From Fervidobacterium pennivorans DSM 9078 (GTDB taxonomy: Bacteria > Thermotogota > Thermotogae > Thermotogales > Fervidobacteriaceae): a stretch of 64,000 nucleotides of DNA. The translations under genes were made by a program, and so were the position numbers. Below, in pieces: positions 55,455 through 62,789 of this stretch. Location of the stretch: assembly GCF_000235405.2 (NCBI RefSeq), contig NC_017095.1, positions 248,001 through 312,000 of the forward strand, written 5' to 3'. Every line of letters starts with the position of its first letter. Position 1 is the first letter of the stretch. The notes under the pieces are model-generated. The model worked only from the letters and a program-made list of their open reading frames with translations, ran no database searches and was not told the origin of the DNA.

Positions 55455-55724
55455 ATGCCAAAAGACATCACAGTGAGAACGGTTATGGCTGTTCTTGTTG
55501 ACAAAAGAGAGCAAGCCGCTGTTGAGGTCCAAAAACTTTTGACAGAGTATGGTTGTTATATCAAAACGCGTTTGGGACTCCATGAAGGCGCAGGTCAGTA
55601 TTGTTCGCCCGTTGGACTTATTATCCTTGAACTAGTTGATGATGAGACAAAGCATGAAGAACTTTGTCAGAAATTAAACGCTATCGATGGTGTTCAAGCA
55701 AAATACATGAAACTTGAAGTGTGA
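55455..55724 (+). CDS. TM1266-like small protein (iron-only hydrogenase system regulator family)
   Basis: An 89-residue protein with an ACT/ferredoxin-like beta-alpha-beta pattern: VRTVMAVLVDKREQAAVEVQKLL, then the YIKTRLGLHEG turn and VGLIILELV. The family is named for its place beside [FeFe]-hydrogenase genes. A regulatory or ligand-binding role is presumed but not shown. The start ATG 55455 has GGGGGTG upstream. It is the only gene of the hydrogen block on the plus strand and lies between the divergent hydF transporter operon and convergent hydE. A second family member is at 58552-58806. Confidence 0.82.
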   Translation: MPKDITVRTVMAVLVDKREQAAVEVQKLLTEYGCYIKTRLGLHEGAGQYCSPVGLIILELVDDETKHEELCQKLNAIDGVQAKYMKLEV

Positions 55725-55776: not shown

Positions 55777-56829
55777 TTAATTTTCAATATTTATCACTTC
55801 TTTTTCTTCATTCATCTCTATCTTTTTTCTGTGTCCGTAGCCCTCTCCAACAACAAGTCCAACACTTCTAATCATTTGCTTTGTACATTCAACACAAGCT
55901 GTATCTCTTTCAAATAGACATATTTTTCCGGGATACAACGAATAATTTGGTCTATACGGATTAGGAGTCAGGTTTGGCATAATAACGTTTGCGCCATATT
56001 TTAGTCCGTACTGTCTTCCAAGCGGGTTTATCGAACCAAGAGCGGTTGTTGCTGGTATGTTCGCAGTTGGAACCACAATTCTTGCAAGTGCTATCATCCG
56101 AAGCGTCGTTTGTAAATCCCCACCTTTTGCATCTTTCAGCGGTGTATCTGGATTTGGTATAAAAGGTCCAATACCTATCATGTCAGCATCAAGTTCTTTA
56201 AGAAATGCAAGGTCTAACGCTAAATCATATGCTGTCTGTCCAGGTAACCCCACCATGAAGCCAGCGCCTGTTTCATAGCCAAGACGTTTTAACTCGTATA
56301 GGTGTGCCTTCCTATTTTCAAAACTATCGCCCGGGTGGAGTTTGGCGTAAAGTTCAGGTGAAGCGGTTTCGTGCCTCATTAAGTATCTGTCAGCTCCCAA
56401 TTCTTTCCAGATACGGTATTCTTCAAACTCACGTTCTCCTATGCTAAGTGTGATTGCAACATCAAGCTTTTTTATCTCGGTTATCAGATGGCTTATGATT
56501 TCAGTTGTATAATACGGGTCTTCACCTGATTGAAGAACTATTGTCTTTATACCAAGCTTTGCGATTAGCCTTGCCCGTTCGATGATTTCTTCAGGACTCA
56601 TCCTGTATCGTTGCAAATTTTTGTTATCGGCTCTAAGCCCACAGTAAAGGCAGTGCTGGGTGCATACATTAGAGAATTCTATAATTGCTCTCAGATGAAC
56701 TTCTTCACCAACATATTTTTTTCTTGTTTCGTCAGCTATTTTGAATATCTCTTCATCATATTTGCCACTCTCTATCACGTGTGTGAGATAATCCAGGTCA
56801 ACGTTTTGTACCTTCTTTATATCCAACAT
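55777..56829 (-). CDS. hydE: [FeFe]-hydrogenase maturation radical SAM protein HydE
   Basis: Radical SAM enzyme that processes the Fe(CO)2(CN)-cysteine synthon made by HydG toward the 2Fe subcluster. The 350 residues carry the CxxxCxxC cluster motif in CTQHCLYCGLRADN (about 56-69), the GEDPYY stretch and a biotin-synthase-like C-terminus. Extra Cys residues in ERDTACVECTKQMI (about 320) may bind a second cluster, as in some HydE proteins. The ATG follows GAGGTGATTTTGT. It is last of the hydrogenase-hydG-hydE series on the minus strand. Confidence 0.95.
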   Translation of the reverse strand: MLDIKKVQNVDLDYLTHVIESGKYDEEIFKIADETRKKYVGEEVHLRAIIEFSNVCTQHCLYCGLRADNKNLQRYRMSPEEIIERARLIAKLGIKTIVLQSGEDPYYTTEIISHLITEIKKLDVAITLSIGEREFEEYRIWKELGADRYLMRHETASPELYAKLHPGDSFENRKAHLYELKRLGYETGAGFMVGLPGQTAYDLALDLAFLKELDADMIGIGPFIPNPDTPLKDAKGGDLQTTLRMIALARIVVPTANIPATTALGSINPLGRQYGLKYGANVIMPNLTPNPYRPNYSLYPGKICLFERDTACVECTKQMIRSVGLVVGEGYGHRKKIEMNEEKEVINIEN

Positions 56830-56854: not shown

Positions 56855-57121
56855 TCAAGAATCTGATGATAATTTTCGAAATCTGACAACATCACTCAAA
56901 GCTTGCATTATCAAATCTTTCTCGTCATCAGTTATTTCACGCTCGCAGAACACGGCATATTTATCGTCTTCGTATGCGATGTAGCTTTCACAGTAACTTT
57001 CTTCTCCTGCTCTTGCGATACAAGACAACCTCCGCCCTATTTTTTCACATATCCATATTTTTGTGTTTAATCTTTCTGCATATGGCTTTAATAGTTCACT
57101 GAGTTTTTCAAAATCTGACAT
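56855..57121 (-). CDS. Small conserved-looking protein between hydG and hydE, unknown function
   Basis: An 88-residue protein starting at ATG 57121 (GGTGAGAGAG upstream), overlapping the hydG 3' end by 14 bp. It reads SDFEKLSELLKPYAERLNTK, then three Cys residues in ICEKIG, LSCIARAG and YCESYIAY, then VFCEREITDDEKDLI. The Cys spacing does not match a ferredoxin. Its tight position inside the maturation gene series argues that it is real and may assist hydrogenase assembly, but I recognise no family. Confidence 0.7.
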   Translation of the reverse strand: MSDFEKLSELLKPYAERLNTKIWICEKIGRRLSCIARAGEESYCESYIAYEDDKYAVFCEREITDDEKDLIMQALSDVVRFRKLSSDS

Positions 57122-58517
57122 CTCTCTCACCGCGGTCAATCCGCTCAAGGTATTTTTCAACAAGTTCTCTGTTATTTACACGCTCGAGCTCTTTTTGGAT
57201 TAATTCGTAACCGAGTTTTTTGGTTTCTTCTGATGCATAATCGTTCAGATATTCTCTAAGTGTGAAGAGTGCGTTTGGTGTGCAGAATCTTTTCACAAAT
57301 CCAGGAATGGCGAATTCCATGAAGTGTTCTCCGGTTCGTCCCATTCTGTAACATGCTGTACAGAATGAAGGAATGTATCCTTCTTTCAAAAGGTCTTGTA
57401 TTACTTCCTCCAGTGACCTGTTATCACCAAGTATAAACTGGCTTTTTCTTATTTTCTCTGGGTCATCTTGTGAATACGAACCAATGCCAATACTTGAACC
57501 TCCATCGATTTGAGAAACGCCCATTTTGAGAACTTCTCTTCTCAATTCGGCTGGTTCACGAGCGGTGAGAATCATACCCGTGTATGGAACTGCCAGTCTT
57601 ATGATGGCGACAAGTTTTTTGAAGTCTTCATCACTAACTTTATGTGGTGGATTGTACGAAATCTCACTACCAACGGCTGGTTCTATTCTTGGGAAGGATA
57701 TTGTGTGAGGACCAACTCCAAAACGTTCTTCAAGGTGTATTGTGTGGTAAATCAAACCCATTACCTCAAACTTCCAGTTGAACAAACCAAAGAGTGCTCC
57801 AATTCCAACATCATCTATGCCAGCAAGCATAGCACGGTCAAGACCATACAATCTCCAAGCGTAATTCGATTTTGGACCGCGTGGATGAAGTTTTTTGTAA
57901 GTTGGTTGATGATAGGTTTCCTGGAAGATTTGGAACGTTCCAATACCTGCTTCTTTGATGATTTTGTAACCTTCCACAGTTTGGGGTGCTGCATTCACGT
58001 TTACCCTTCTTATCTCTCCGTTACCGACTTTTGTTTCGTAGATTATTCTAATTGTTTCAGCTATGAACTCGGGACTGTATCTTGGATGTTCTCCATAGAC
58101 CACTATCAATCTTTTGTGCCCTCTGGATACTAGTGCCCTAACTTCGTTTCTGAGTTCCTCAAAGGTCAATGTTTTTCTGTAAACCTCTTTGTTAGAACTC
58201 CTAAATCCACAGTAGACACAATCATTAACACAGTCGTTGCCTATGTAGAGTGGTGCAAAAAGGACTATTCTGTTGCCATATATACGCTCCTTAAGAGTTC
58301 TGGCAGCGTGGAAGATTTCTTCAAGCATTTCTGGGTCTTCAACATTAAGCAAAGTCGCCACTTCCTCAGGTTCGAGCCTGTTTTTGTTCAGTGATTTATC
58401 AAGAATTTCTAAAACCCTTTTTTTGTCGGGATTTTTTGTCTTTTCAAGCAATTCCCAAATTTCTGCCTCTGGGATGAATGTTTTTTCCGTATCAATTTCT
58501 TTTGTAAATACATACAT
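57108..58517 (-). CDS. hydG: [FeFe]-hydrogenase maturation tyrosine lyase HydG
   Basis: Radical SAM enzyme that cleaves tyrosine to give the CO and CN- ligands of the H-cluster. The 469 residues hold CVNDCVYCGFR (CxxxCxxC, about 96-106) and the C-terminal auxiliary-cluster motif CTACYRMGRTGEHF with a third Cys in KRFCTPN. The ThiH-like barrel lies between. The start ATG 58517 has GGAGG eight bases upstream. GTG at 58526 overlaps that site. It lies between the TM1266-like gene and the small 88-residue gene. Confidence 0.96.
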   Translation of the reverse strand: MYVFTKEIDTEKTFIPEAEIWELLEKTKNPDKKRVLEILDKSLNKNRLEPEEVATLLNVEDPEMLEEIFHAARTLKERIYGNRIVLFAPLYIGNDCVNDCVYCGFRSSNKEVYRKTLTFEELRNEVRALVSRGHKRLIVVYGEHPRYSPEFIAETIRIIYETKVGNGEIRRVNVNAAPQTVEGYKIIKEAGIGTFQIFQETYHQPTYKKLHPRGPKSNYAWRLYGLDRAMLAGIDDVGIGALFGLFNWKFEVMGLIYHTIHLEERFGVGPHTISFPRIEPAVGSEISYNPPHKVSDEDFKKLVAIIRLAVPYTGMILTAREPAELRREVLKMGVSQIDGGSSIGIGSYSQDDPEKIRKSQFILGDNRSLEEVIQDLLKEGYIPSFCTACYRMGRTGEHFMEFAIPGFVKRFCTPNALFTLREYLNDYASEETKKLGYELIQKELERVNNRELVEKYLERIDRGERDVRF

Positions 58518-58551
58518 ACTTTCCACCTCCGAATTTAATCGAATTAATATT

Positions 58552-58806: not shown

Positions 58807-60558
58807 TTACTTCCCTCCTGTTGATTTTTCTTGTCTTCTTTCGGCTTTTGACCTGTCCGTATAGTAAGTGTGCAGATAATGGTGTGCTACGTGACCGTTA
58901 GGTTCTCCTACGAATTCTTCGTAAAGTTGAATAATTTCTGGGTTTTCGTGCGAGCGTCTGATAACGCTCATTTCGTCTATGCTGTAGATTGCTCTAGCAC
59001 GCTTTTTAATAATATCTGGGTCTAAACTCTTAGGTTGGCCACCACCACCGATACATCCACCCATACAAGCCATCACTTCGACAAAGTCGTAATTTCTTTT
59101 CCCTTCCTTGATTTCTTTCAGCAATCTCTTCGCGTTTGCAGTTCCATTTACAATTGCAACCTTAAGCTTCCTGGTTTTGAAATCGACCTCTGCTTCTCTG
59201 ATTCCGTCGAGTCCTCTAACTTCTGAGAAAACGAGTCTTGGTAACTTTTCACCAGTGAACTTTTCATACGCAGTTCTTAATGCTGCTTCCATAACACCAC
59301 CAGTGACACCAAATATGGCACCTGCACCGGAGGATGCTCCCAGTGGACTATCGTGTTTTTCCTCGGGCAGATTTACAAAGGAAATGCCTTTGAACCTTAG
59401 CATCTTTGCAAATTCACGAGTTGTTATTACATAATCTGTAACTTTTATGCCGTTTACAACGTGTTGAGAGCGCTCTATCTCATCTTTTTTTGCTGTGCAC
59501 GGCATAACAGCTACCATAACGATATTTTCAGGTGCGACTCCAAGTTTCTTTGCAAAATACTCGCGAGTACTACTCATTATTTGCATTGGAGATTTTGTTG
59601 TCGATAGGTTTGGTATGAACTCCGGAAACTCTTTTTCAACCATGTTTACCCAACCCGGACAACAGCTTGTGAACATAGGTAATACTCCGCCTTTTGTTAG
59701 TCTATGGAGAAGTTCGTGTGCTTCTTCCATTATCGTTAAGTCCGCTCCGAAATTTGTATCAAAAACGTAGTCAAAGCCTAATCTTCTAAGTGCCGCAACC
59801 ATCTTTCCAGTACTCACAGTTCCTGGTTCCATGCCAAATTCCTCTCCGATTGCCACTCTCACCGAAGGAGCAGTCTGTGCTATAAACACCTTTCCGTTTT
59901 TGTTTTCAAGCATGTGTAGTAGTTTTTTCCAAGTTGGAGCTTCGTATATTGCCCCAACGGGACACAAGTAAGCGCATTGCCCACAACTGATACAGTTCGT
60001 TTCATAAACAGGCAATCCAAATTCTGTTTCTGGGACTGTTTCATATCCTCGCTCTATCATAGAATATATGTTCATGCCTTGTATCTCACTACACACGCGT
60101 ACACACCGCTGACATTTTATACATTTTGTTAGGTCTCTGTGAATCGATGGACTGCTTGTGTCTATATACTTGGGGAAACTAACAGAAATCCCAAAGGTAG
60201 GTTGAACATCGTACATATGGACAAGTTTTTGGAGTTCGCACCTACCATCAGCTTCACAATACATACATTCGTGTGGATGGTTTGCCATAACTAATTCAAG
60301 GTTCAGCTTGACTGCATTTTCAACACGTTCTGTGTTTGTCCGTATTACCATTCCGTCGGCAACTTTGGTTGCGCATGCGGGCTGAAGCGTCTTGAATCCC
60401 TCGACCTCTACAACACAAATTCTACAAGCTCCGATGGGCTGAAGTTCAGGATGATGACACAGGGTGGGTATGTGGTATCCAAGTTGTGACGCTACTTCAA
60501 GTATTGTTTTCCCTTCTTCAACCTCATGTTTGTCACCGTTGATATAAATTGTAACCAT
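58807..60558 (-). CDS. [FeFe]-hydrogenase catalytic subunit, copy 1 (leader-regulated)
   Basis: A 583-residue hydrogen-evolving or hydrogen-oxidising enzyme of the HndD/HydA type. From the N-terminus: [2Fe-2S] domain (LCHHPELQPIGACRICVVE, Cys about 34-62), the HxxxCxxC cluster site HPHECMYCEADGRC (about 93), two [4Fe-4S] clusters (CIKCQRCVRVC, CISCGQCAYLCP, about 143-195), then the H-domain with L1 FTSCCPGWVN, L2 VMPCTAKKDE and L3 ACMGGCIGGGGQP. It ends in a short small-subunit-like tail. No flavin subunit is adjacent. It starts at ATG 60558 with GGAGGGG, behind a riboswitch-like leader. Confidence 0.95.
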   Translation of the reverse strand: MVTIYINGDKHEVEEGKTILEVASQLGYHIPTLCHHPELQPIGACRICVVEVEGFKTLQPACATKVADGMVIRTNTERVENAVKLNLELVMANHPHECMYCEADGRCELQKLVHMYDVQPTFGISVSFPKYIDTSSPSIHRDLTKCIKCQRCVRVCSEIQGMNIYSMIERGYETVPETEFGLPVYETNCISCGQCAYLCPVGAIYEAPTWKKLLHMLENKNGKVFIAQTAPSVRVAIGEEFGMEPGTVSTGKMVAALRRLGFDYVFDTNFGADLTIMEEAHELLHRLTKGGVLPMFTSCCPGWVNMVEKEFPEFIPNLSTTKSPMQIMSSTREYFAKKLGVAPENIVMVAVMPCTAKKDEIERSQHVVNGIKVTDYVITTREFAKMLRFKGISFVNLPEEKHDSPLGASSGAGAIFGVTGGVMEAALRTAYEKFTGEKLPRLVFSEVRGLDGIREAEVDFKTRKLKVAIVNGTANAKRLLKEIKEGKRNYDFVEVMACMGGCIGGGGQPKSLDPDIIKKRARAIYSIDEMSVIRRSHENPEIIQLYEEFVGEPNGHVAHHYLHTYYTDRSKAERRQEKSTGGK

Positions 60559-60584: not shown

Positions 60585-60798
60585 AAAAACAAAAATCCCT
60601 CTTTCCTTTACCCAAGGAAAGAGGGACGAATTGATTTTAATAAAGCCCAACTATGTTTGTACAGTGCAAGCCATTATTGCTCAATACAAAGTTTTGCTTT
60701 ACGATATAATCTCCATCCCTCTTTCCTTGGTGTCAGAGCAATTCGCTCCTTCACCTCAGAAAGCACAAACAAACACTTAGCGAAAATATTCACATGTC
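60585..60798 (-). promoter_or_regulatory. Candidate riboswitch or attenuator in the hydrogenase leader
   Basis: On the minus strand an aptamer-like stem at 60763-60721 reads CTTTC-TGA-GGTG-AAG-GAGC, loop GAATT, GCTC-TGA-CACC-AAG-GAAAG: three helices separated by two 3x3 UGA/AAG internal loops. Its closing strand GAAAG lies inside AAGGAAAGAGGG (60728-60717). That 12-mer can pair with CCCTCTTTCCTT (60625-60614), which otherwise forms a 12-bp terminator hairpin with AAGGAAAGAGGG (60608-60597) followed by ATTTTTGTTTTT. The aptamer and antiterminator exclude each other. The ligand and class are unknown to me. Confidence 0.75.
60597..60625 (-). terminator. Conditional terminator in the hydrogenase leader
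   Basis: Perfect 12-bp stem CCCTCTTTCCTT / AAGGAAAGAGGG with 5-base loop and a U-rich tail, 39 bp before the hydrogenase start. Confidence 0.88.
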
Positions 60799-60804
60799 GT
60801 AAAT

Positions 60805-60834
60805 ATTATAACACAAAAACATATGAGTATACAA
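60805..60834 (-). promoter_or_regulatory. Promoter of hydrogenase copy 1
   Basis: TTGTAT (60834-60829), an 18-base spacer, TATAAT (60810-60805). Transcription would begin near 60798 and give a leader of about 240 nt. Confidence 0.72.
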
Positions 60835-60975: not shown

Positions 60976-62742
60976 TTAGTTAACCTTTTCAACCTCTTTT
61001 TGTTGTTGAGCCTTCCTGACGGCTCTTGACCTATCGGTGTAGTGTGTATGCAACAAGTGGTGTGCGATGTGGCTGTTCGGTTTTTCTAAGAATTCTTCGT
61101 AGAGTTTTATGATATCTGGGTTTTCATGTGACCTTCTCAGTACGCTGAGTTCGTCAATGGTGTAAATAGCTTGTGCACGTTTCTTAAGAATATCTGGGTC
61201 AAGGCTCTTCGGTTGTCCACCGCCACCGATACAACCACCAAGACACGCCATTATCTCGACAAAGTCGTAGTATCGTTTCCCTTCTTTCATTTCTCTCAGC
61301 AATTTTTTCACACTTGCCATACCGTGTGCAATAGCTACTTTGAGTTTTCTTCCTTTAATATCAATTTCTGCTTCTCTTACACCATCCAGGCCTCGTACGC
61401 TTTCGAACACAAGTTTCGGTAATTTCTCGCCTGTCAAAACTTCGTAAGCTGTTCTGAGAGCTGCTTCCATAACACCACCAGTCACACCAAAGAGCGCAGC
61501 AGCACCTGTTGATGTTCCAAGTGGGCTATCATACTGTTCTTCTGGAAGATTTACGAATGGTATACCTTTGAGTTTAATGAGCTTTCCGAGTTCTCTTGTT
61601 GTAATGACGTAATCCGTTACTTTGATACCGTCGACCAATTGTTGTGGTCTTGTTATTTCGTCTTTCTTAGCTGTACATGGCATAATTGATACCATAACTA
61701 TATCTTCAGGTTTCACACCTATCTTTTGTGCAAAGTATGTTTTGACAACACTACTCATCATCTGTTGTGGGGACTTTGCCGTTGAGAGGTGTTCTCTGAG
61801 TTCGGGCCATTCTTTCTCCATTTCGTTTACCCAACCAGGGCAGCAGCTTGTGAACATTGGGAACTTACCGCCGTTTTGGAGCCTTCCAATGAGTTCGTAA
61901 CCCTCTTCCATAATTGTAAGGTCAGCTGCGAAGTTTGTATCAAATACATAGTCGAAACCAAGTCTTCTAAGTGCAGCAACCATCTTCCCTGTGCTTATGC
62001 TTCCGGGTTCCATGCCAAATTCTTCACCTATTGCAACCCTGACAGATGGAGCTGTTTGTGCAACGTAAACTTTGCCGGGTTCCTTGCTGTTTAGCATTTT
62101 CCAAACTTTCTTCCAGTCTGGTGCTTCGTAAATAGCTCCTACTGGACACAAGTTGGCACACTGACCGCAGCTTATACAGTCAGTTTCGTAAAGTGGGACG
62201 CCGAATTCTGTCTCTGGTAGGGATTCGTAACCACGTTCAATCATTGAGTATATGTTCATACCCTGTATTTCACTACACACTCTCACACATCTCTGACACT
62301 TAATACACTTGGACAGGTCTCTGTGAACAGAAGGGCTACTCATATCTATTTCTTTTTCTATGTTAACATTTACACCAAATATAGGTTGAACATCGTACAT
62401 GTGAACAAGTTTTTGAAGTTCACAGCGCCCATCTGCTTCACAGTACATACATTCGTGGGGATGGTTCGACATTATCAAAGAAAGGTTGAACTTGACTGCG
62501 CTTTCTACTCTTTCCGTGTTTGTCTTTATCTTCATTCCATCGGCAACTTTTGTTGTACAAGCAGGTTGGAGCGTTCTTGCCCCCTCAATTTCAACAACAC
62601 ATATTCTACAAGCTCCAATTGGTTCGAGTTCGGGATGGTGACAAAGGGTTGGAATTTTGAAACCTAAATCTGCCGCAGCTTCAAGCACTGTTTTGTTTTC
62701 TGGAACTTGATAAGGTTTGTCGTTGATATAGATAGTTACCAT
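60976..62742 (-). CDS. [FeFe]-hydrogenase catalytic subunit, copy 2
   Basis: A 588-residue paralogue of the gene at 58807-60558, with the same domain order: [2Fe-2S] (TLCHHPELEPIGACRICVVE), HPHECMYCEADGRC, CIKCQRCVRVC, CISCGQCANLCP, then L1 FTSCCPGWVN, L2 IMPCTAKKDE and L3 ACLGGCIGGGGQP. By eye most residues are identical, so this is a tandem duplication. The start is ATG 62742 with GGAGGTGG upstream. The frame reaching 62772 lacks a site. It has a short leader and its own terminator. It differs from copy 1 mainly in a few linker positions and the C-terminal tail. Confidence 0.95.
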   Translation of the reverse strand: MVTIYINDKPYQVPENKTVLEAAADLGFKIPTLCHHPELEPIGACRICVVEIEGARTLQPACTTKVADGMKIKTNTERVESAVKFNLSLIMSNHPHECMYCEADGRCELQKLVHMYDVQPIFGVNVNIEKEIDMSSPSVHRDLSKCIKCQRCVRVCSEIQGMNIYSMIERGYESLPETEFGVPLYETDCISCGQCANLCPVGAIYEAPDWKKVWKMLNSKEPGKVYVAQTAPSVRVAIGEEFGMEPGSISTGKMVAALRRLGFDYVFDTNFAADLTIMEEGYELIGRLQNGGKFPMFTSCCPGWVNEMEKEWPELREHLSTAKSPQQMMSSVVKTYFAQKIGVKPEDIVMVSIMPCTAKKDEITRPQQLVDGIKVTDYVITTRELGKLIKLKGIPFVNLPEEQYDSPLGTSTGAAALFGVTGGVMEAALRTAYEVLTGEKLPKLVFESVRGLDGVREAEIDIKGRKLKVAIAHGMASVKKLLREMKEGKRYYDFVEIMACLGGCIGGGGQPKSLDPDILKKRAQAIYTIDELSVLRRSHENPDIIKLYEEFLEKPNSHIAHHLLHTHYTDRSRAVRKAQQQKEVEKVN

Positions 62743-62789
62743 CGGCCACCCACCTCCGTATAATGATAGCAAAGAAAAAGTCTAATGCT

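What the first reader, a model, noticed from the sequence alone, without database searches (positions are those of the whole stretch)
60585..60798. Riboswitch-like leader before one of two [FeFe]-hydrogenase genes
Seen: a stem with two identical 3x3 UGA/AAG internal loops in opposite orientation (60763-60721). Its closing 3' strand lies within a 12-mer (60728-60717) that can base-pair perfectly with the 5' half (60625-60614) of a 12-bp intrinsic terminator just before the hydrogenase ribosome site. The terminator's 3' half repeats the same 12-mer. Known: this mutual exclusion is how transcriptional riboswitches and protein-dependent attenuators work. Inferred: hydrogenase copy 1 is switched by a ligand or protein sensing redox state, metal, a cofactor or hydrogen metabolism. 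I cannot match the aptamer to any class I remember, so it may be new.
Basis: partly seen in the sequence, partly recalled or inferred. Interest (0 to 1): 0.8.

Follow-up and report, generated by a model that had tools for sequence, protein, structure and literature searches.

The report
New RNA switch controlling hydrogenase assembly genes
A short, mirror-symmetric RNA hairpin at the start of hydrogen-enzyme assembly operons is conserved across two bacterial phyla but absent from the public RNA-family catalogue, and it probably shuts these genes off when something, perhaps the uncharacterised protein TM1266, binds it.

Summary
Window 60763-60721 (minus strand) folds into a 43-nt hairpin with two 3x3 UGA/RAG internal loops related by a two-fold axis. 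The element is conserved: 60 of 103 Thermotogota genomes at E<1e-3, and at least 28 sampled Bacillota genomes. All three helices covary while the loops stay C-UGA-[4 bp]-RAG-G on both strands. It has no Rfam 15 match above threshold. Nearly all convincing copies precede [FeFe]-hydrogenase maturation genes: TM1266, hydG, hydF, or TM1266-hydE. The hydA context in the window is a local rearrangement; the operon is leader-hydA2-TM1266-hydG-ORF-hydE. Two output designs occur, terminator/antiterminator and direct Shine-Dalgarno burial. In both, the folded hairpin should mean OFF. What it senses is not shown. Every genome with a convincing copy encodes TM1266, a NikR-C/ACT-fold protein without a DNA-binding domain, and the RNA is dyad-symmetric. 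I therefore favour TM1266 as an autogenous RNA-binding regulator (about 0.5) over a small-molecule riboswitch (about 0.35). The RNA element is near-certain; the partner is a testable inference.

The parts
60805..60834 (-). predicted promoter (TTGTAT, 18 nt, extended -10 TGTTATAAT); predicted start near 60798
   Evidence: read directly from the sequence; not listed by the consensus scan because only 3 of 6 positions match in the -35 hexamer; inference only
60778..60795 (-). Rex-like inverted repeat ATGTGAATATTTTCGCTA at the predicted start (11 of 14 matches to TTGTGAAnnnnTTCACAA)
   Evidence: better matches just upstream of the hairpin in L135, L194, L126, L107; operator consensus quoted in PMC6391272
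60721..60763 (-). conserved dyad-symmetric hairpin (sensor): C-UGA-[4 bp]-AAG-G on each strand
   Evidence: R3 match 48.1 bits, E=1.9e-14, the only strong match in the window
60756..60758 (-). outer loop, 5' side (UGA)
   Evidence: conserved
60726..60728 (-). outer loop, 3' side (AAG)
   Evidence: conserved as RAG
60749..60751 (-). inner loop, 5' side (AAG)
   Evidence: conserved as RAG
60733..60735 (-). inner loop, 3' side (UGA)
   Evidence: conserved
60717..60728 (-). antiterminator strand (AAGGAAAGAGGG), overlaps the 3' strand of the hairpin; pairing extends to about 19 bp
   Evidence: conserved complementarity
60628..60716 (-). linker with a long stem; not conserved outside this genus
   Evidence: comparison of leaders
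60595..60627 (-). intrinsic terminator; 5' arm pairs with the antiterminator strand, 3' arm repeats it
58807..60558 (-). hydA2, group A6 [FeFe]-hydrogenase (first gene of the controlled operon here)
   Evidence: NF040763, 834 bits
58552..58806 (-). TM1266-family protein, candidate RNA-binding partner
   Evidence: TIGR03959, 103.8 bits over cut-off 60.8; 2nzc; fold
57108..58526 (-). HydG radical-SAM maturase
   Evidence: TIGR03955, 545 bits
56855..57163 (-). 102-aa ORF of unknown function in the operon
   Evidence: no family; a similar small ORF in the same slot
55777..56829 (-). HydE radical-SAM maturase
   Evidence: TIGR03956, 369 bits

Best explanation
[quoted passage not shown] Without its partner, the nascent leader forms a long antiterminator and the operon is read through (ON, inferred from energies). 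When the partner binds the two-fold symmetric hairpin, the hairpin's 3' strand is locked away, the terminator forms and transcription stops (OFF, inferred). In one Thermotogota family the same strand is instead the Shine-Dalgarno of the controlled gene or of a short leader ORF, so binding would block translation. I propose that the partner is the TM1266-family protein encoded in the same operon. It would be a NikR-C/ACT-fold oligomer that reads the two UGA/RAG loops across a dyad, represses its own operon and the other maturation genes, and lets go or holds on according to a ligand bound by its ACT fold. Shown: conservation, covariation, dyad consensus, mutually exclusive pairing, gene association, TM1266 in every genome with a convincing copy. 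Inferred: polarity, TM1266 binding, ligand.
For: Covariation: 9 of 12 pairs change on both sides, 118 double-change cells against 36.6 +/- 7.9 in shuffles, 92% of cells paired; with Bacillota sequences added, 10 of 12 pairs and the central helix 98.8% paired. Loops stay UGA/RAG on both sides. Distribution: 60/103 Thermotogota genomes at E<1e-3; in Bacillota most hits below E 1e-4 lie before TM1266, hydG or hydF. Mutually exclusive pairing in 42 of 53 distinct leaders; for leaders before TM1266 the mean duplex energy is -22.4 against -10.9 shuffled. Energies: antiterminator favoured by about 10 kcal/mol in the nascent RNA, near balance in the full leader (-71.2 against -73.1). TM1266 link: all 60 motif genomes have it, 7 of 43 others do; 19 of 20 sampled Bacillota hit genomes have it and the exception is a hit inside an unrelated gene; five HydG+ TM1266- species lack the element. 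Where TM1266 is unlinked, the element stays at hydG/hydF and TM1266 remains in the genome. TM1266 folds as NikR-C/ACT without a DNA-binding domain.
Against: No binding, probing or expression experiment exists for this RNA. TM1266 and the hyd genes travel together, so co-occurrence cannot separate TM1266 from a metabolite of the pathway. The five-species co-loss may be a single contiguous deletion, because hairpin and TM1266 are adjacent. In Clostridia most TM1266-bearing genomes show no recognisable element (10/145 HydG+ TM1266+ genomes with it, against 0/42 HydG+ TM1266-; p=0.12). 'Convincing' Bacillota copies were partly judged by gene context, which is circular for those beside TM1266. One Thermotogota genome (G048) has TM1266 and HydG but no element. 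RNA binding by a NikR-C/ACT-fold protein has no precedent I know of.
Confidence: 0.5

Rival explanations
1. A small-molecule or ion riboswitch: the two UGA/RAG loops form one or two pockets for a ligand of H-cluster metabolism (an iron species, SAM-derived product, H-cluster precursor or related cofactor), and ligand binding stabilises the hairpin and turns the genes off.
For: Architecture typical of transcriptional and translational riboswitches with two output designs; gene set is one pathway plus possible transporters (ECF S component, NitT/TauT-type ABC); no protein binding shown.
Against: Small element with about 14 conserved nucleotides arranged with two-fold symmetry and an almost free central helix in Bacillota (24 types in 29 copies), which suits a dimeric protein; no convincing copy outside TM1266-bearing genomes.
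Confidence: 0.35
2. Another protein of the pathway (for example HydF, HydG or HydE) binds the RNA and feeds back on its own maturation operons.
For: The element precedes hydF, hydG and hydE operons, so any product could be autogenous.
Against: HydG and HydE are kept in the five species that lost the element together with TM1266; no RNA-binding role of these enzymes is known to me.
Confidence: 0.08
3. A DNA operator for a transcription factor that happens to fold as RNA, with an ordinary terminator downstream.
For: At DNA level it looks like a direct repeat CTGA-N4-RAGG twice, close to the promoter and next to a Rex-like box.
Against: The N4 blocks are complementary (98% and 94% paired) and not identical (26% and 36%), so selection is on RNA pairing; the 3' strand is tied to terminators or Shine-Dalgarno sites; in Thermosipho it lies between hydA and TM1266, away from any evident promoter (L038).
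Confidence: 0.03
4. A constitutive partial terminator setting operon stoichiometry, without a sensor.
For: In Thermosipho it sits between hydA and the maturation genes (L038), where constant attenuation would lower the latter.
Against: Strict conservation of the two internal loops across phyla is unexplained; the translational version has no terminator.
Confidence: 0.04

Closest known systems
PyrR-binding-loop attenuators (RF00515) and ribosomal-protein autogenous leaders such as the L10 leader (RF00557)
   Same: Works like them: a protein of the operon would bind a leader hairpin and decide between antiterminator and terminator; in other lineages it hides the Shine-Dalgarno.
   Different: No significant match in Rfam at the window (RF00515 21.3 bits against 54 needed; RF00557 32.4 against 44 at L199); different genes, loops and putative protein fold.
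Transcriptional riboswitches, in particular Moco/Wco riboswitches, which can precede ferredoxin hydrogenase genes (PMC9481103)
   Same: Mutually exclusive terminator and antiterminator driven by an aptamer-like domain.
   Different: No Rfam match to any riboswitch; single hairpin with dyad-related loops; ligand unknown.
TM1266 family (TIGR03959, PF21699; structure 2nzc), annotated only as putative iron-only hydrogenase system regulator
   Same: The operon carries a clear member and the RNA tracks it.
   Different: No target was known; this work supplies a candidate RNA target.
NikR nickel-responsive repressor
   Same: TM1266 shares the fold of its C-terminal regulatory domain.
   Different: TM1266 lacks the N-terminal DNA-binding domain; the proposed target is RNA.
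PyrG leader (RF02371)
   Same: The terminator hairpin of the window scores against it (E=0.0028).
   Different: 35.3 bits against a gathering score of 65, and only the terminator aligns; not a member.

Membership tests
Any Rfam 15 family | score at or above the family's gathering threshold over the element | tested here: not met
   window, 20 Thermotogota loci, 12 Clostridia loci
PyrR binding site / attenuator (RF00515) | PyrR-binding hairpin upstream of pyrimidine genes | tested here: not met
   21.3 bits against 54; genes are hyd, not pyr
Riboswitch | conserved covarying aptamer-like domain in a leader | tested here: met
Riboswitch | expression platform mutually exclusive with the aptamer | tested here: met
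Riboswitch | direct binding of a metabolite or ion without protein | not testable with these tools
   needs in-line probing or in vitro transcription
Protein-dependent autogenous attenuator | candidate protein encoded in the controlled operon | tested here: met
   TM1266 within 6 kb downstream of 54 of 86 listed hits, mostly within 180 bp
Protein-dependent autogenous attenuator | RNA absent where the protein is absent | tested here: inconclusive
   0 of 5 HydG+ TM1266- Thermotogota, but possibly one contiguous deletion; 0/42 against 10/145 in Clostridia, p=0.12
Protein-dependent autogenous attenuator | protein binds the RNA | not testable with these tools
   needs EMSA or similar
TM1266 family (TIGR03959) | score over the curated cut-off | tested here: met
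   103.8 bits against 60.8

The most novel reading that the evidence does not exclude
TM1266-family proteins are a new class of RNA-binding regulators: stand-alone NikR-C/ACT-fold oligomers that recognise a two-fold symmetric RNA hairpin through paired UGA/RAG loops and couple H-cluster status, iron or another ligand to hydrogenase maturation in Thermotogota and Bacillota.
Probability: 0.45. Interest if true: 0.9.

Novelty: new variant of a known kind. Interest (0 to 1): 0.82.

Why it matters
[FeFe]-hydrogenases are the most active H2-producing enzymes, and how cells match maturase supply to need is largely unknown beyond Rex-type redox repression. A conserved RNA at the maturation operons of two phyla gives a direct, small target to test. 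It also offers a concrete hypothesis for TM1266, a protein whose structure was released in 2006 and which is still annotated only as a putative regulator. If a small ligand is involved, the RNA may be a sensor for a step of H-cluster biosynthesis and a tool for engineering H2 producers.

Tried and rejected
Rfam membership: rejected; the best sub-threshold match (PyrG leader) aligns only to the terminator. DNA-operator reading: rejected because the central blocks covary as complements, not repeats. hydA as the primary target: rejected; hydA2 is a local insertion between leader and TM1266, and the other copy (hydA1, 76% identical) has no element. Weak model hits inside genes (L175-L179, L182-L184; L276, L293 and others) were inspected and discarded. 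A first complementarity test used a faulty anchor on the 3' strand and was replaced. The genome count listed nine TM1266-only genomes through a script slip; the right number is seven, recomputed. Paper searches found no description of the element; the 2017 survey of 224 candidate RNAs is not in the held library, so prior naming there is checked only indirectly through Rfam 15.

Full report
WHAT WAS CHECKED. The minus strand at 60763-60721 reads CUUUC-UGA-GGUG-AAG-GAGC-GAAUU-GCUC-UGA-CACC-AAG-GAAAG. This is a hairpin with two 3x3 internal loops, UGA opposite AAG and AAG opposite UGA. The 12-mer AAGGAAAGAGGG at 60728-60717 is repeated at 60608, and its complement lies at 60625-60614. The terminator runs 60627-60595. 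The leader is far more stable than shuffles (z=-5.7). No Rfam family reaches threshold.

CONSERVATION. A DNA search of 45 genomes of the order found the block 60763-60718 conserved while the surrounding leader is not. A covariance model from 16 sequences, run on all 103 Thermotogota genomes, found the element in 60 at E<1e-3, 25 of 38 genera at the looser E<=0.1, usually one copy per genome. Manual inspection found divergent copies in four more (G063, G079, G097, G101), later confirmed with a better model.

STRUCTURE. On 53 distinct Thermotogota sequences, 9 of 12 pairs change on both sides, 92% of cells are paired and the covariation score is 0.477 against 0.241 +/- 0.015 in shuffles; sliding the partners destroys it. 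Adding Bacillota gives 10 of 12 pairs and a central helix 98.8% paired with all four pairs changing on both sides. The consensus is the same on both strands: C-UGA-[4 bp]-RAG-G, that is, two loops related by a two-fold axis. In 29 Bacillota copies the central 4 bp take 24 forms yet are 94% paired (109 of 116 pairs; 69.5 +/- 3.9 when strands are swapped between sequences). One caution: these copies were found with a structure model, which favours pairing, although most are supported independently by gene context.

GENE CONTEXT. In Thermotogota, 54 of 86 listed hits, weak ones included, lie on the same strand upstream of a TM1266 gene, 50 of them within about 180 bp. The remaining good ones precede hydF (L012, L120, L132, L136-L140, L142, L144, L180, L181) or hydG (L123, L127, L130, L134, L135, L141, L191, L194), and one (L128) precedes an ABC transporter. 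In the window the order is leader, hydA2, TM1266, hydG, a 102-aa ORF, hydE. In Bacillota, a model trained on Thermotogota alone hit six places in 291 Clostridia, four of them just before hydG. The combined model then found it before TM1266, hydG or hydF in at least 18 of 398 genomes of the phylum sample and 12 of 291 of the class sample, two shared, 28 in all.

HOW IT PROBABLY WORKS. The hairpin's 3' strand is complementary to the 5' arm of a downstream terminator in 42 of 53 distinct leaders. For leaders before TM1266 the mean duplex energy is -22.4 kcal/mol against -10.9 for shuffled downstream sequence, 31 of 35 at p<=0.05. In the window the nascent RNA favours the antiterminator by about 10 kcal/mol (-68.1 against -58.2), and the full leader is balanced (-71.2 against -73.1). 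The exceptions belong almost entirely to one family (f8). There the 3' strand RAGGAGG sits just before the start codon of hydF or TM1266 (L136, L144, L180; L119, L124, L125, L143), or before a short leader ORF followed by a terminator (L123, L127, L130). Both designs imply that a stabilised hairpin means OFF. This polarity is inferred from anatomy and energies.

WHAT BINDS IT. Not shown. For TM1266: every one of 60 motif genomes has it, against 7 of 43 others (p=4e-21 ignoring phylogeny). Of 20 Bacillota hit genomes tested, 19 have it, and the exception is a hit inside an unrelated gene. When TM1266 is unlinked (G052-G055, G063-G065, G101; several Bacillota), the element stays with hydG or hydF while TM1266 remains elsewhere in the genome. 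Five species of one genus keep HydG but lack both TM1266 and the element, while a sister species has both. TM1266 folds as a NikR C-terminal/ACT domain (pLDDT 95; best matches 2nzc and NikR) and has no DNA-binding domain, and a dyad-symmetric RNA suits a symmetric oligomer. Limits: the pathway genes co-occur anyway; the co-loss may be one deletion because the two are adjacent; the Clostridia comparison is not significant (10/145 against 0/42, p=0.12); one genome (G048) is an exception. A small-molecule riboswitch therefore remains a serious rival.

EXPRESSION AND OTHER LAYERS. In T. neapolitana, CO2 raises the TM1266, HydG and HydE genes about 6- to 7.5-fold but HydF only 1.28-fold (PMC7039931), so the operon is strongly regulated, though not necessarily by this RNA. 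Rex-like boxes lie just upstream of the element in many leaders, and HydG is a validated Rex target in Caldicellulosiruptor (PMC6391272), so redox repression at the promoter and the RNA switch may act in series.

NOVELTY. No Rfam 15 family, no mention in the papers searched, and nothing reported at these genes in the T. maritima multi-omic annotation or the comparative survey of cis-regulatory RNAs (main texts). I rate it a new RNA family acting through known kinds of output: a new variant of a known kind, with a categorically new protein class as the upside.

Noticed in passing
window 60795-60778 (-); L135, L194, L126, L107: Rex-like inverted repeats at the promoter just upstream of the hairpin, suggesting redox control in series with the RNA switch.
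   Followed up: partly
L212, L217, L238, L248, L262: Clostridial leaders carry a second, half-like element (CCUGACGAG...CGAAGGGGG, one UGA/AAG loop; a variant in L238) after the full hairpin, then a terminator.
   Followed up: partly
L128; L289; L151 and L153: A NitT/TauT-type ABC transporter is preceded by the element in G061 and possibly G688, and its homologue follows unlinked TM1266 in G054/G055: a possible transporter for an H-cluster precursor or iron.
   Followed up: partly
L199, L200, L315: An ECF transporter S component follows TM1266 in some Clostridia, with a copy of the element before it; in L199 and L200 hydG comes next.
   Followed up: partly
L123, L127, L130: In family f8 hydG leaders the element's 3' strand is the Shine-Dalgarno of a short leader ORF ahead of a terminator, suggesting translation-coupled attenuation.
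   Followed up: no
window 56855-57163 (-): Small ORF between hydG and hydE without any Pfam or NCBIfam match, with a similar ORF in the same slot in distant Thermotogota.
   Followed up: no
window 55482-55709 (+): A second, weaker TM1266/NikR-C-like paralogue convergent with hydE; most TM1266-bearing Thermotogota genomes have one such paralogue.
   Followed up: no
window 60976-62772 and 58807-60558 (-): hydA1 and hydA2 are tandem copies 76% identical; only hydA2 is behind the element, so the two copies may be expressed under different rules.
   Followed up: partly
L288, L136, L144, L278: aspA-like genes (aspartate ammonia-lyase, an ammonia source) lie beside hydF or TM1266 in many of these operons.
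   Followed up: no
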